22,612 nucleotides of DNA. Origin: a virus. The position numbers and the translations under genes are program-made. The notes below the pieces were generated by a model that made no database searches, was not told the origin of the DNA, and was given only the letters and a program-made list of their open reading frames with translations. Shown one piece after another: positions 79 through 17,709 of this stretch (position 1 is its first letter; each line of letters opens with the position of its first letter). Location: the IMG/VR virus record IMGVR_UViG_3300035698_010137, positions 1 through 22,612 of that record; one strand, 5' to 3'.

Positions 79-322
79 CAAAAGCCTCCCTAAAACATTC
101 ATTATAAATATCGTCATATTCATGCAGTGTAGGGTCAAAGGTGAGCCCAGTCGCAGCGTTTATAATTGTTTCTATGTCGATGTGCGCAGGGTTATCAGGC
201 TCATATGGCGCTCCAAGGCTGTCCCTACATCCACGCTCATGAGCAAACGCCTGATATGTAACCAGAATTTCGATGTCGCGATCTTCACGCTCAGAATAAA
301 TCTCCGTTAACAATTCATTCAT
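71..322 (-). CDS. Unrecognised small acidic phage protein (83 aa)
   Basis: This 83-residue acidic protein starts MNELLTEIYSERED and ends FREAFDD. It has no membrane segment, no signal peptide and no motif I recognise. Its ATG at 320-322 overlaps the TGA of the upstream alanine-rich gene (ATGA-type overlap), and its own stop overlaps the start of the next gene, so it sits inside a tightly coupled chain. A GGGA stretch lies just upstream of the start. Composition (many Glu/Asp, scattered Tyr, His and aromatic residues) fits a small soluble accessory protein. Such phage proteins often bind host proteins, but that is only a general possibility. Coding status is supported by spacing, not by homology. 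Confidence 0.6.
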   Translation of the reverse strand: MNELLTEIYSEREDRDIEILVTYQAFAHERGCRDSLGAPYEPDNPAHIDIETIINAATGLTFDPTLHEYDDIYNECFREAFDD

Positions 323-1011
323 TTTTTCCCTTTCTGCGCACGTGCGCTCGAGACCATAGCCGTAAGCCGTCGGTTTTGCACAGCATGAGCAGCATGAGCA
401 GCAGCAGCATGAGCAGCATGAGCATTAACAGCATGAGCAGCAGCACAAGCAGCAACATGAGCAGCACCAGCATAAGCAGCAGCATGAGCAGCAGCAGCAC
501 ATGAGGCAGCATAAGCATCAGCAGCAGCACATGAGGCAGCATAAGCATGAGCAGCAGCACGAGCAGCACATGAGGCAGCAGCGCATGAGGCAGCATAAGC
601 ATCATAAGCGAGCTCTGTATCAGTGATTTCTCCTTGCAGCCATTTGCGTTTGGCTGCTATCGCGTCGAAGAATCGTTGATCGGGATTTTTGATAAGTGCG
701 AGTGCATCTTCCGCGCAACGGCACGAAAATTCGTGGAAGACTTTTTTCGCGTCGATCATCCATAATACCTTGCGGTTGCGCCCAACGATTTTGTCATCAC
801 CGACGATCACATCGCCCGTGATCTCCACTCGGCAGACGATGCTGCCGCCCGCATAGCCAAGAGCATCAATCAGACGCTGCGATCCGTGCATACCGTTGAC
901 GCACAGGTGTGGGTCACCGCGTTTTAGTCGATATGTCTTGCCGGTCCGGACTAGTCGTCTATCACGATACCCAAGCCGCTTATCATCCCCCAAAATATGC
1001 CAAGCCTTCAT
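319..1011 (-). CDS. DUF7666-type protein with long alanine-rich C-terminal repeat tail
   Basis: The first ~102 residues match a pattern I recognise as the DUF7666 family of phage and bacterial proteins: start MKAWHILGDDKRLGY, then the Cys-x-Asn-Gly-Met-His 'G-hit' around residues 37-42, ICR-like VCRVEITGDVI near 59-70, GDDK at 71-74, VLWMIDA near 82-88 and the FHEF-Cys-x-Cys-Ala end near 92-100. The biochemical function of this family is unknown to me. Residues ~135-211 are almost pure alanine broken by Tyr, His, Ser-Cys and Asp, and members of this family often carry such Ala-rich tails. The last ~19 residues are basic. I chose ATG 1011 rather than the longer frame to 1119 because the family homology starts there and the ATG overlaps the stop of an upstream coupled gene. 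A start four codons earlier (1023) is possible. Confidence 0.8.
   Translation of the reverse strand: MKAWHILGDDKRLGYRDRRLVRTGKTYRLKRGDPHLCVNGMHGSQRLIDALGYAGGSIVCRVEITGDVIVGDDKIVGRNRKVLWMIDAKKVFHEFSCRCAEDALALIKNPDQRFFDAIAAKRKWLQGEITDTELAYDAYAASCAAASCAARAAAHAYAASCAAADAYAASCAAAAHAAAYAGAAHVAACAAAHAVNAHAAHAAAAHAAHAVQNRRLTAMVSSARAQKGKK
379..609 (-). repeat. GCT-dominated codon repeat encoding the alanine-rich tail
   Basis: This 231-bp stretch of imperfect short repeats (AGC, AGCATG and AGCATA units as seen on the plus strand) encodes 77 residues. In the coding strand nearly every alanine is GCT, whereas the rest of the gene mixes GCG, GCA and GCC. A longer unit encoding Ala-Tyr-Ala-Ala-Ser-Cys-Ala-Ala occurs three times near the start of the tract (about 500-600). 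The reading frame is preserved throughout. The uniform codon use indicates recent growth by replication slippage or unequal recombination, not selection of individual codons. Confidence 0.85.
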
Positions 1012-1181
1012 CGTGATCCCCATATCTGATCGCACAAAACGATTATGCCAAAAGGTACACTCCAAATCAGCAGCGAGACCAGCATCGGCGAGAGGCAGCC
1101 TGCCGCACGATCTCTCCACGTCTTTTCGGCGGACATGCGCTTCTGCTCAGCATACGCCTCGACCGCTGCCTTGTGCTGCAT
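1008..1181 (-). CDS. Small single-span membrane protein (57 aa)
   Basis: A 57-codon gene starts at ATG 1181 and ends in TGA 1008-1010. The N-terminal half (MQHKAAVEAYAEQKRMSAEK, then TWRDRAAG) is charged and helical. Residues ~29-50 form one hydrophobic segment (CLSPMLVSLLIW, then SVPFGIIVLC), followed by a short tail. The ATG lies 2 nt after the TAA of the previous gene, and its TGA overlaps the ATG of the DUF7666-type gene (ATGA). Both junctions are what a coupled operon gene would show. With only 57 codons it is easily missed. No family is recognised; it could be a small inner-membrane regulator or a toxin-like peptide, but nothing in the sequence decides this. Confidence 0.65.
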   Translation of the reverse strand: MQHKAAVEAYAEQKRMSAEKTWRDRAAGCLSPMLVSLLIWSVPFGIIVLCDQIWGSR

Positions 1182-1460: not shown

Positions 1461-1985
1461 TTACTCCCCATCCGTTTCGGCTTTGGCAATAGCGGCTCTA
1501 ACTCTTGCTGCAATTGCTCCGACCTGTACCAGAATTTTGTTTGGCAGGATGCCGTGGTCTGAGAGGAGGCCCGCTTCTACCACCGCTTCCAGCGCGTCCA
1601 GCGCGTCTGCGACAAGGCGGGCGTTTGTCAGGAGCTCATCATCGATCTCGTCAAGCTCGGCAAGCTCCCAAGTTTCACCCTCATCGTCGAGCCTGCTCCG
1701 CACCGCGGCCTGGGCCGACCCTATATTGTGCGCGCAAAAATCCAAAGATGCGCCGCGAGCAAACCTTTGAGCTTCCGCCAAAGTCAACAGGCGGAGAGAA
1801 TAGAGATCAAAGCCCAAAGCCTCTTTTGCCTCCTCAAAAGTGATCGCCCGATTACCAAAATGCTCATCAATATAATCGCCTTCGGCGATGCATACGCGAT
1901 CAATAAAATCTTGCTCATCTTCAGCGACCCATGCGGTCGCCGGTCCCTGACCCGTAATTTCGACGACGTAAATTGCTTTGCTCAT
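1461..1985 (-). CDS. Unrecognised acidic protein, full-length member of a duplicated gene pair (174 aa)
   Basis: This 174-residue acidic protein begins MSKAIYVVEITGQG. The N-terminal ~60 residues look like a small alpha/beta module with the stretch TAWVAEDEQDFIDRV. The remainder is helix-rich and strongly acidic (DELDEIDDELL-type segments, then an Ala/Val-rich helix). Start ATG 1985 is set by an AGGAG Shine-Dalgarno sequence about 8 nt upstream. The frame is open further upstream (to 2075) only because it runs into remnants of the duplicated copy. The N-terminal 60 codons and the leader including the Shine-Dalgarno sequence are repeated 320 bp upstream in the 2033-2305 gene. No family is recognised. 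Negative charge is seen in many phage inhibitors and DNA mimics, but that is only a possibility. Confidence 0.7.
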   Translation of the reverse strand: MSKAIYVVEITGQGPATAWVAEDEQDFIDRVCIAEGDYIDEHFGNRAITFEEAKEALGFDLYSLRLLTLAEAQRFARGASLDFCAHNIGSAQAAVRSRLDDEGETWELAELDEIDDELLTNARLVADALDALEAVVEAGLLSDHGILPNKILVQVGAIAARVRAAIAKAETDGE

Positions 1986-2032
1986 TTTTTTCTCCTCATG
2001 CCTAGTCAAAAAAACTTCAAAACGCTCCATCC

Positions 2033-2305
2033 TCAGGTGCAGGGAGTACAGAGCAGAGCCCAAAGCCTCGCCCAAAGCCTCTTGGGCCTCGGCAAACGTG
2101 ACCGCCCGATTACTAAAATGCTTAGCTCAGAGCCCAAAGCCTCTTGGGCCTCGGCAAACGTGATCGCCCGATTACCAAAATGCTCGTCAATGTAACCGCC
2201 TTCGCCGAGACATACGCGATCAATAAAATCTTGCTCATCTTCAGCGACCCATGCGGTCGCCGGTCCCTGACCCGTAATTTCGACGACGGAAATTGCTTTG
2301 CTCAT
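2033..2305 (-). CDS. Frameshifted, truncated paralogue of the neighbouring 174 aa gene (90 aa)
   Basis: The first ~58 residues (MSKAISVVEITGQG to AEAQEALG) match the start of the gene at 1461-1985 with few changes. After that the protein diverges into LSILVIGRSRLPRPKRLW and ends after 90 residues. The divergent part is the same DNA that encodes NRAITFAEAQEALG, read in another frame: a 62-bp tandem duplication, not a multiple of three, has shifted the frame. Without it the frame would run on into the downstream copy. The AAGGAG Shine-Dalgarno sequence and ATG 2305 are intact, so a short basic-tailed protein may still be made. It is either a decaying copy or a new short variant; the sequence alone cannot say which. 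Confidence 0.6.
   Translation of the reverse strand: MSKAISVVEITGQGPATAWVAEDEQDFIDRVCLGEGGYIDEHFGNRAITFAEAQEALGSELSILVIGRSRLPRPKRLWARLWALLCTPCT
2058..2184 (-). repeat. Nested tandem duplications (12 bp and 62 bp) inside the second gene copy
   Basis: A 53-bp block at 2070-2122 recurs at 2132-2184 with only two or so differences, giving a 62-bp period with a 9-bp linker. In front of it a 12-bp unit (gcccaaagcctc) is repeated directly at 2058-2069 and 2070-2081. Compared with the other gene copy the net insertion is 74 bp, which is not divisible by three and explains the shifted C terminus of the 2033-2305 product. Confidence 0.85.
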
Positions 2306-2340
2306 TTTTTTCTCCTTATGCCTAGTCAAGTTTGTGTAAA

Positions 2341-2586: not shown

Positions 2587-2991
2587 TTAATCGGTCATTA
2601 CGCTCGCCATAAATTTTGCGTGATCTTGGTATTCCGCCTCATCTTCGGAGGCTTTTTTGGACTTGGCCTCAGCGGCCAAATACTCCGGACCAGCTTGGAC
2701 CCTGCTAATTGCATCAAGTACACGACTCAAATTTTTGGCCGTCATACCTAGACGGCCGATCCGTCCTGCGACCCCGTCTGTAAGGCGGTCATATTTGGGA
2801 GCGCCATAACCCATGTGACCCATACCCTCGACCGTGGCCTCGATCGACACACAATATACGTAGTGCGGTTTCCACGAGCCGAAATGCATGTAACCCTTGT
2901 CTCGCCATTCTTTTATCGTGACCGTAGCCTTTGCACCTGCGCCGGTCAGCCACTCGATTGTTGCGCTTGGATTGTTTTTTTTATCGCTCAT
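2587..2991 (-). CDS. Unrecognised protein, first gene of the left operon (134 aa)
   Basis: This 134-residue protein starts MSDKKNNPSATIEWLTGAG. The first ~75 residues look beta-rich with many aromatics (KEWRDKGYMHFGSWKPHYVY), the rest is helical and charged (EYLAAEAKSKKASEDEAEYQ). The start has the best Shine-Dalgarno sequence of the left region (AAGGAGG at 2999-3005, 7 nt spacing). It is the first gene behind the promoter, leader and terminator at 3012-3162, so its expression should depend on read-through of that terminator. At its 3' end the sequence encoding Met-Thr-Asp-stop is directly repeated (11-12 bp), giving two consecutive in-register stop codons. No family recognised. Confidence 0.7.
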   Translation of the reverse strand: MSDKKNNPSATIEWLTGAGAKATVTIKEWRDKGYMHFGSWKPHYVYCVSIEATVEGMGHMGYGAPKYDRLTDGVAGRIGRLGMTAKNLSRVLDAISRVQAGPEYLAAEAKSKKASEDEAEYQDHAKFMASVMTD

Positions 2992-3011
2992 CGTTGTTCC
3001 TCCTTATCCGC

Positions 3012-3051
3012 AAAAAAAACGGCCCTGACCACCATCGGGGCGGTCAGGGCC
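3012..3051 (-). terminator. Rho-independent terminator or attenuator before the left operon
   Basis: A perfect 10-bp GC-rich stem (GGCCCTGACC at 3021-3030 pairing with 3042-3051) with an 11-nt loop is followed on the minus strand by a run of eight T (3012-3019, allowing one intervening base). This is a textbook intrinsic terminator for leftward transcription. It ends only 7 nt before the Shine-Dalgarno sequence of the 2587-2991 gene, and it lies downstream of the promoter at 3135-3162. It therefore terminates or attenuates the new transcript as well as read-through from the virion operon. Confidence 0.9.
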
Positions 3052-3128
3052 ACCCCAAAGCTGACTAGGCAAGTAGGGGAGAAAGGTTTTGTCTTGGTCT
3101 TGGTTATCTTGTCCCAGTCAGCTAAGTT
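3012..3128 (-). ncRNA. Predicted ~117-nt structured leader or small RNA
   Basis: From the predicted transcription start (about 3128) to the end of the T run is about 117 nt with no plausible start codon and Shine-Dalgarno pair of its own. It contains a perfect 8-bp inverted repeat (AGCTGACT at 3116-3123 on the minus strand pairing with 3059-3066) enclosing about 49 nt, followed by the terminator hairpin. The enclosed loop carries a short direct repeat (CAAGAC twice). The arrangement fits either a terminated small RNA or the 5' leader of an attenuated operon. Promoter and terminator are seen directly; RNA function is inferred. Confidence 0.5.
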
Positions 3129-3134
3129 AATTTA

Positions 3135-3162
3135 ACTATAGCCCATCCAGAGGGTGAGTCAA
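3135..3162 (-). promoter_or_regulatory. Strong sigma70-type promoter for the left operon
   Basis: On the minus strand TTGACT (3157-3162) is followed after 16 bp by TATAGT (3135-3140). Each hexamer matches the bacterial consensus in five of six positions and the flank downstream is AT-rich. An inverted repeat GTTAA-N-TTAAC (3126-3136 on the plus strand) overlaps the end of the -10 element and the start site and could be an operator. The promoter lies in the 177-bp gap between the virion genes and the left accessory genes, the only sizeable gap inside the cluster. Confidence 0.75.
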
Positions 3163-3176
3163 ATACTTTTTTATTT

Positions 3177-3512
3177 TTATTGACGTTTTTTCTTCGGCTG
3201 GTTGAGCGGGGTAAATTGCGTACATCTATCGGCACTGCCGCAATTTCGCTTAATGACCGGCGTCTCGTTGCCGCCGAACGCGCATATTTGGGGAACACAG
3301 CACGGGCCTGTATGTGGGAGCATCCTGTCTTCGCGCCGCCAGTAAACGCAATCGGCAGGGCGTGGGGCGGGGTCTGCCTGTCCGGCCTCCCCATAAAATT
3401 TGAGCGTCCCGGCCTGGCAATAATCGCACAGGGCCTCCGAGCCAATCCTGATTCCGTGTCGATTACATATTTTCCGACCGTCGATGATTGCCATGTATTT
3501 ACAATCTATCAT
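3177..3512 (-). CDS. Ten-cysteine small protein, likely metal-binding (111 aa)
   Basis: This 111-residue protein has cysteines at about 4, 16, 29, 32, 55, 71, 72, 77, 91 and 97. The first half (start MIDCKYMAIIDGRKICNRHG, then ALCDYC) has the spacing of a zinc-ribbon or iron-sulphur type motif: Cys, Cys-x2-His, Cys-x2-Cys. The end is very basic (QPKKKRQ). Its ATG overlaps the stop of the upstream gene (ATGA). It is the last gene of the long virion operon, directly before the promoter of the left unit. A start at Met7 is possible. No named family is assigned; a metal-binding role is inferred from cysteine spacing only. Confidence 0.6.
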   Translation of the reverse strand: MIDCKYMAIIDGRKICNRHGIRIGSEALCDYCQAGTLKFYGEAGQADPAPRPADCVYWRREDRMLPHTGPCCVPQICAFGGNETPVIKRNCGSADRCTQFTPLNQPKKKRQ

Positions 3513-17665: not shown

Positions 17666-17709
17666 AAAAAGACCCGCCAACCAACAAGCATAACTTGCCA
17701 GTTGGCGGG
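17666..17709 (-). terminator. Intrinsic terminator directly after the capsid gene
   Basis: A 9-bp stem (cccgccaac at 17673-17681 with gttggcggg at 17701-17709) continues, after a small internal loop, with a second 4-bp stem (caag/cttg) and a 5-nt loop. On the minus strand it is followed by TCTTTTT (17666-17672). It begins 11 nt after the capsid stop codon and ends just before the Shine-Dalgarno sequence of the connector gene. It should lower transcription of the tail genes relative to the capsid gene. Confidence 0.8.

What the first reader, a model, noticed from the sequence alone, without database searches (positions are those of the whole stretch)
3012..3162. Promoter, structured leader and terminator immediately before the left operon: attenuator or small RNA
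A strong minus-strand promoter (TTGACT, 16 bp, TATAGT) would start a transcript of about 117 nt that ends in a perfect 10-bp hairpin plus T8. The hairpin lies 7 nt before the Shine-Dalgarno sequence of the first left-operon gene. Most transcripts should therefore stop before the genes unless an antiterminator, a ligand, a phage factor or structure switching in the leader (8-bp long-range stem 3059-3066/3116-3123) allows read-through. Alternatively the product is a phage small RNA, and the operon is expressed from the upstream virion transcript. Either would be a compact control element for an accessory operon of unknown genes.
Basis: partly seen in the sequence, partly recalled or inferred. 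Interest (0 to 1): 0.7.

Follow-up and report, generated by a model that had tools for sequence, protein, structure and literature searches.

The report
Phage leader with two competing hairpins
In front of a small accessory gene group, an unclassified phage carries a promoter and a short RNA leader that can fold either into a strong stop signal or into a hairpin that prevents it, which looks like a switch or dimmer for those genes, although no relative was found in which to confirm it.

Summary
The 185-nt gap at 2992-3176 is the largest non-coding gap in the window. On the minus strand it holds a good sigma70-like promoter with an A-rich upstream tract, a 13-bp perfect palindrome over -10/+1, a 15-bp stem, and the strongest intrinsic terminator of the window (13 bp plus U8), just ahead of the Shine-Dalgarno of the first left-operon gene.

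A different hairpin does: a 9-bp stem, 3058-3050/3043-3035, takes up the terminator's whole 5' arm. It folds first, is separated from the terminator form by about 16-19 kcal/mol, and is unusual against shuffles (P about 0.001-0.002) and against 141 other terminators. Co-transcriptional read-through is therefore plausible: a leaky or conditional terminator yielding both a 117-nt RNA and the operon mRNA. The nearest described arrangement is Gifsy-1 IsrK.

The RNA also has 18-bp bipartite complementarity to the ribosome-binding sites of two duplicated left-operon genes (P 0.003-0.07 depending on the null). No relatives were found, so covariation could not be tested. Ligand, trigger and host are unknown. 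A plain terminator ending the virion operon remains a serious rival.

The parts
3163..3184 (-). A/T-rich upstream tract (86% A+T) immediately before the -35, UP-element-like
3157..3162 (-). -35 hexamer TTGACT
3135..3140 (-). -10 hexamer TATAGT (16-nt spacer)
3125..3137 (.). perfect 13-bp palindrome AGTTAAATTAACT over -10/+1; candidate operator (inferred)
   Evidence: only exact copy in the window; 20 palindromes of this class in the window, 13 expected, so only its position is notable
3012..3128 (-). predicted 117-nt leader RNA / small RNA
   Evidence: -53.2 kcal/mol, z = -6.5
3059..3123 (-). stem 1: 3123-3113/3069-3059 (11 bp), A bulge, 3111-3108/3073-3070 (4 bp); compatible with both the antiterminator-like hairpin and the terminator
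3035..3058 (-). competing antiterminator-like hairpin AT, 3058-3050/3043-3035, 9 bp, loop CCCUGA, about -15 kcal/mol, abuts stem 1
3021..3051 (-). intrinsic terminator stem-loop T, 13 bp, -27.7 kcal/mol
3012..3019 (-). U8 tract of the terminator
2999..3005 (-). Shine-Dalgarno AAGGAGG of the first left-operon gene, just after the U tract
2587..2991 (-). first left-operon gene, 134 aa, no family match
3059..3090 (-). leader segment complementary in two blocks (11 + 7 bp) to the RBSs of two left-operon genes, -25.9 kcal/mol
2305..2329 (-). RBS of the 90-aa gene 2305-2033: TTGACTAGGCATAAGGAGAAAAAAA; candidate target of the leader RNA
1985..2009 (-). RBS of the 174-aa gene 1985-1461: TTGACTAGGCATGAGGAGAAAAAAA; second candidate target, a copy of the first by tandem duplication
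3177..3512 (-). last gene of the virion-side block, 111 aa, Cys-rich; ends 14 nt upstream of the -35
   Evidence: no family match

Best explanation
It is a cis-acting transcription control element for the left (accessory) operon. A sigma70-like promoter, possibly repressible through the palindrome over -10/+1, starts a leader that folds in order. Stem 1 forms first. Next a 9-bp hairpin (AT, 3058-3035) forms against stem 1 and takes up the 5' arm of the terminator. Only when the last bases are made can the more stable 13-bp terminator (T) form by displacing AT. Polymerases that pass while AT holds read into the operon; those that pause long enough, or whose AT strand is blocked, stop and release a 117-nt RNA. 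The AT/T competition thus sets the share of operon mRNA and small RNA, and also acts on transcripts arriving from the virion genes. Shown by computation: the parts, the mutually exclusive folds, the order of folding on the nascent RNA, and unusualness against shuffles and other terminators. Inferred: promoter use, the actual read-through fraction, any regulator or ligand, and the role of the palindrome.
For: Promoter, leader, terminator and SD are in the right order and strand in the largest non-coding gap of the window. RNA z = -6.5. Before T's 3' arm is made, the minimum is stem 1 + AT at -38.5; the full RNA is stem 1 + T at -53.2. AT stays the minimum until base 3027 of T's 3' arm is available, and the calculated AT-to-T barrier is 15.6 (zip path) to 18.7 kcal/mol (findpath). 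Sequestration of the 5' arm is as strong in only 0.2% of dinucleotide-shuffled upstream leaders and 0.1% of random 7-nt linkers, and this was the only one of 21 strong terminators with P<=0.05. In the larger control (144 terminators from phage contigs, 300 kb of E. coli K-12 and the window), with a looser stem definition it still had the second-lowest P. The only E. coli terminator with an equal or larger effect was the genuine ilvL attenuator. There is no room for another promoter between the terminator and the first gene (20 nt), so the operon must be reached by read-through or from a promoter further in.
Against: No relative was found, so neither AT nor stem 1 has covariation support. T is far more stable than AT at equilibrium, and RNA folding models leave out the polymerase and pseudoknotted invasion through AT's loop, which could let T form quickly. 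P depends on how the stem is delimited (0.001-0.007 versus 0.035). The test also misses classical attenuators (trp, his, thr and leu do not score), so it is a weak classifier. No leader peptide, Rfam family or known ligand-binding motif was found.
Confidence: 0.42

Rival explanations
1. It is an ordinary terminator that ends the virion transcript and damps flow into the accessory genes, with an ordinary promoter in the same gap; AT and stem 1 have no regulatory role. Accessory genes are expressed by simple leakage.
For: The same phage has an equally strong hairpin directly after the major capsid gene and before the next virion gene (17 bp, -27.4 kcal/mol, T-rich tail at 17672), so strong terminators between genes that must both be expressed are part of its design. 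The promoter hexamers are only modestly above chance.
Against: It does not explain the 15-bp stem 1 (upstream region folds better than 99.2% of shuffles) or the AT hairpin (P 0.001-0.002). The promoter is placed to make a 117-nt RNA.
Confidence: 0.27
2. The main product is the 117-nt small RNA, a phage regulator. It base-pairs with the RBSs of the two duplicated genes of the neighbouring operon (and possibly host mRNAs) and blocks their translation.
For: Own promoter, two stem-loops and U8 tail. Two-block complementarity to TTGACTAGGCAT..GGAGAAA at 2329-2305 and 2009-1985, -25.9 kcal/mol. P = 0.004 for the segment against all RBSs, 0.07 for the whole leader against all RBSs, 0.015 for the whole leader against left-operon RBSs, 0.003 with shuffled targets. 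Longest exact match 10 nt: P 0.044 (all RBSs) and 0.008 (left operon).
Against: The pairing segment is locked in stem 1 (-22.2 kcal/mol), so net pairing energy is about zero without help. The two targets are one duplication and count once. The comparison was made after seeing the match. No homologues.
Confidence: 0.17
3. Q-type or put-type processive antitermination: the polymerase is modified at the promoter-proximal region by a phage factor or by the leader RNA itself and then passes the terminator, as at the lambda late promoter.
For: The anatomy (promoter, short leader, intrinsic terminator, operon) is that of the lambda late leader as I know it from general knowledge. Lambda Q loads at a promoter-proximal sigma-dependent pause using a DNA element (PMC7171158). 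The palindrome over -10/+1 could be a DNA element of that kind.
Against: No antiterminator-like gene was recognised among the window proteins scanned, though the window is a fragment and many proteins match nothing. Here the operon is accessory, not the virion genes. No boxA-like sequence seen in the leader by eye.
Confidence: 0.1

Closest known systems
Gifsy-1 prophage isrK-orf45-anrP locus (PMC4825925)
   Same: Prophage promoter makes a short RNA ending at an intrinsic terminator; part of the transcripts reads through into a downstream operon; the short RNA pairs with an ORF of the read-through mRNA.
   Different: No sequence or gene homology shown. IsrK activates translation and the target lies directly downstream; here the complementary RBSs are about 700 and 1000 nt downstream and pairing would cover the SD, suggesting repression. 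In IsrK no terminator-competing hairpin was noted in the sections read.
pT181-type antisense attenuator (PMC4878617)
   Same: An upstream sequence sequesters the 5' part of the terminator stem, so elongation is the default and termination occurs when that sequence is taken away.
   Different: There the antiterminator sequence lies in the base of the sensing hairpin and the trigger is a cis-encoded antisense RNA; here AT is a separate hairpin after stem 1 and no antisense promoter was found near the leader on the plus strand.
E. coli ilvL attenuator
   Same: The only E. coli terminator in the control set whose 5' arm is as strongly sequestered in the nascent RNA.
   Different: ilvL encodes a leader peptide; this leader has no credible one.
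Lambda late promoter leader with Q antitermination
   Same: Promoter, short leader, intrinsic terminator, operon.
   Different: No Q gene or Q-binding element identified here; downstream genes are accessory.

Membership tests
Transcription attenuator (conditional intrinsic terminator in a 5' leader) | promoter, leader and intrinsic terminator ahead of the first gene on the same strand | tested here: met
Transcription attenuator (conditional intrinsic terminator in a 5' leader) | a second structure that excludes the terminator | tested here: met
   AT 3058-3050/3043-3035 overlaps the whole 5' arm of T
Transcription attenuator (conditional intrinsic terminator in a 5' leader) | conservation or covariation of both structures in relatives | not testable with these tools
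   no relatives found:
Transcription attenuator (conditional intrinsic terminator in a 5' leader) | signal-dependent change of read-through | not testable with these tools
   needs in vitro transcription or reporters
Known riboswitch / leader / sRNA families (Rfam 15) | match at gathering score | tested here: not met
   no match at gathering score; only sub-threshold hits, none near its gathering score
Leader-peptide (trp/his type) attenuator | short translated ORF with a stall site in the leader | tested here: not met
   only a GTG ORF starting at 3053 inside the terminator and a TTG ORF starting at 3072 inside stem 1
IsrK-like dual small RNA/mRNA | short RNA complementary to a site in its own read-through mRNA | tested here: inconclusive
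   -25.9 kcal/mol two-block pairing, P 0.003-0.07 by null model, segment buried in stem 1
IsrK-like dual small RNA/mRNA | both isoforms observed | not testable with these tools
   needs Northern blot or RNA-seq
pT181-type antisense attenuator | antisense RNA promoter opposite the leader | tested here: not met
   no plus-strand promoter-like site between 2475 and 3488
Q-type antitermination leader | Q protein gene and Q-binding element | tested here: inconclusive
   no Q-family or other antiterminator match among the 20 window proteins scanned against PHROGs (10 of them also against Pfam; about 14 smaller virion-region ORFs not scanned); the window may be a fragment of the genome

The most novel reading that the evidence does not exclude
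A self-contained phage RNA circuit: the AT/T folding race divides transcripts of one promoter between an accessory-operon mRNA and a 117-nt small RNA, and that small RNA in turn pairs with the RBSs of two duplicated genes in the same mRNA, so one leader controls its operon at both transcription and translation.
Probability: 0.1. Interest if true: 0.75.

Novelty: new member of a known kind. Interest (0 to 1): 0.42.

Why it matters
Attenuators and read-through small RNAs are well known in bacteria but few have been worked out in phages. This one is compact (about 150 bp), sits in front of genes of unknown function, and gives a sharp, cheap test: seven bases (3058-3052) should control read-through. 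If the leader RNA also acts on the duplicated downstream genes, it would be a second, unrelated case of the IsrK arrangement.

Tried and rejected
Relatives: megablast and distant blastn against phages, tblastn of TerL, the first left-operon protein, the tail protein and MCP, eight scans of viral contigs and two of genome contigs gave only distant MCP/TerL relatives (no more than 34% identity), none sharing the leader or left operon. The single viral contig with the same terminator arms (L089) is unrelated in sequence and looks like a chance match.

A 2:3 helix between stem 1's 3' arm and the terminator's 5' arm: rejected, pair probability below 1e-7 in the full RNA.

Rfam with relaxed threshold: only sub-threshold chance hits. 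Leader peptide: none credible. Unrestricted RNAduplex of the full leader with RBSs is dominated by the G/C-rich terminator and was not used. The 13-bp palindrome as significant by itself: rejected, 20 such palindromes exist in the window.

Full report
CONTEXT. The window is a complete record of 22,612 bases from a virus collection, classed as linear and possibly a fragment. Recognisable genes run on the minus strand in virion order: terminase large subunit, portal, scaffold and major head protein, then uncharacterised genes down to 3177. After a 185-nt gap (2992-3176), the largest non-coding gap of the window, a second set of minus-strand genes of unknown function follows (2991 to 71; one matches DUF7666). 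The phage has no close relative in any collection searched. The host is unknown.

THE OBSERVATION. All stated parts exist. The promoter TTGACT-16-TATAGT scores third in the window; whole-window shuffles give 0-3 equal or better sites. It is the only one of the top three in a gene gap, and it follows a 22-nt stretch that is 86% A+T. The terminator is a 13-bp stem with U8, the strongest of the window. Perfect stems of at least 10 bp followed by a T tract occur once in the window and never in 20 shuffles. The predicted 117-nt RNA folds far better than shuffles (z = -6.5). A perfect 13-bp palindrome covers -10/+1. Palindromes of that class are not rare here (20 against 13 expected), so only its position suggests an operator.

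THE SWITCH. Folding the growing transcript shows another structure: once 3035 is made and before the terminator's 3' arm is available, UUGGGGUGG (3058-3050) pairs with CCGCCCCGA (3043-3035) next to stem 1. This hairpin, AT, uses the entire 5' arm of the terminator, so AT and T exclude each other. The totals are -38.5 for stem 1 + AT and -53.2 kcal/mol for the full RNA with T. AT remains the minimum until the transcript reaches 3027. The calculated barrier from AT to T is 15.6 along the zip path and 18.7 by findpath. If a polymerase covers about 14 nt of RNA (general knowledge), 3027 is exposed only when it stands near 3013, at the end of the U tract. This step is inference; nested-structure models cannot represent invasion through AT's loop or the polymerase.

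CONTROLS. With the upstream leader shuffled, 0.2% of cases sequester the 5' arm as strongly; with a random 7-nt linker, 0.1%. The same test on 21 strong terminators gave one with P<=0.05, this one. With a looser stem definition and 144 terminators, including 300 kb of E. coli K-12, it ranked second by P (0.035). The only E. coli terminator with an equal or larger effect was ilvL, a genuine attenuator, and one phage-contig terminator had a larger one. The test is not a general detector: trp, his, thr and leu do not score.

THE SMALL-RNA READING. The leader segment 3059-3090 can pair in two blocks with the RBSs of the genes starting at 2305 and 1985, covering the SD (-25.9 kcal/mol). These two RBSs are copies made by a tandem duplication (93% identical over 206 nt), so they count once. 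Depending on the null, P is 0.003 to 0.07. The segment lies in stem 1, which costs about 22 kcal/mol to open, so pairing would need help. This is suggestive only.

COMPARISON. The Gifsy-1 isrK locus is the nearest described arrangement: promoter, short RNA, leaky terminator, downstream operon, and pairing of the short RNA with its own read-through mRNA (PMC4825925). The AT logic resembles the pT181 attenuator, where an upstream sequence holds the 5' part of the terminator and elongation is the default (PMC4878617). Lambda-type Q antitermination (PMC7171158) cannot be excluded, but no such gene was recognised among the proteins scanned. No Rfam family matches and no leader peptide is credible.

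PLAIN ALTERNATIVE. This phage also has an equally strong hairpin right after the major capsid gene, where downstream virion genes must still be expressed. Strong terminators with read-through therefore seem to be part of its normal layout, and the element may be no more than the end of the virion unit plus a promoter. I give this 0.27.

VERDICT. Observation confirmed. Interpretation partly supported, with the switch moved to a different helix and the expected default questioned. It is a new member of a known kind, of moderate interest because it rests on one genome without relatives.

Noticed in passing
window 17673-17709 (-), T-rich tail at 17672: 17-bp terminator-like hairpin (-27.4 kcal/mol) directly after the major capsid gene and before the next virion gene, probably setting capsid:tail expression by read-through.
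   Followed up: partly
window 1804-2009 and 2124-2329: Tandem duplication (206 nt, 93% identical, 320 nt apart) that copied an RBS and the start of a left-operon gene; the upstream copy gives a 90-aa product beside the 174-aa one.
   Followed up: partly
window 319-1062 (-): DUF7666 protein with a low-complexity Ala/Cys/His-rich repeat tail (GCAGCATGAG-type repeats at 367-607).
   Followed up: no
window 2974-2982 and 3012-3020: U8 of the terminator is complementary to an A8 run in codons 4-6 of the first left-operon gene; on a read-through mRNA a 9-bp helix would enclose the SD and start codon in a loop.
   Followed up: no
window 3177-3512 (-): Cys-rich 111-aa protein without family match at the end of the virion-side block.
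   Followed up: no
whole window: Deeply divergent phage: head protein 25-34% identical to P22-coat-like proteins of Vibrio phages and metagenomic contigs; terminase 28% to Halorubrum phage Hardycor1 and 25-28% to Thermus phages; the two tail-region proteins searched gave no match.
   Followed up: partly
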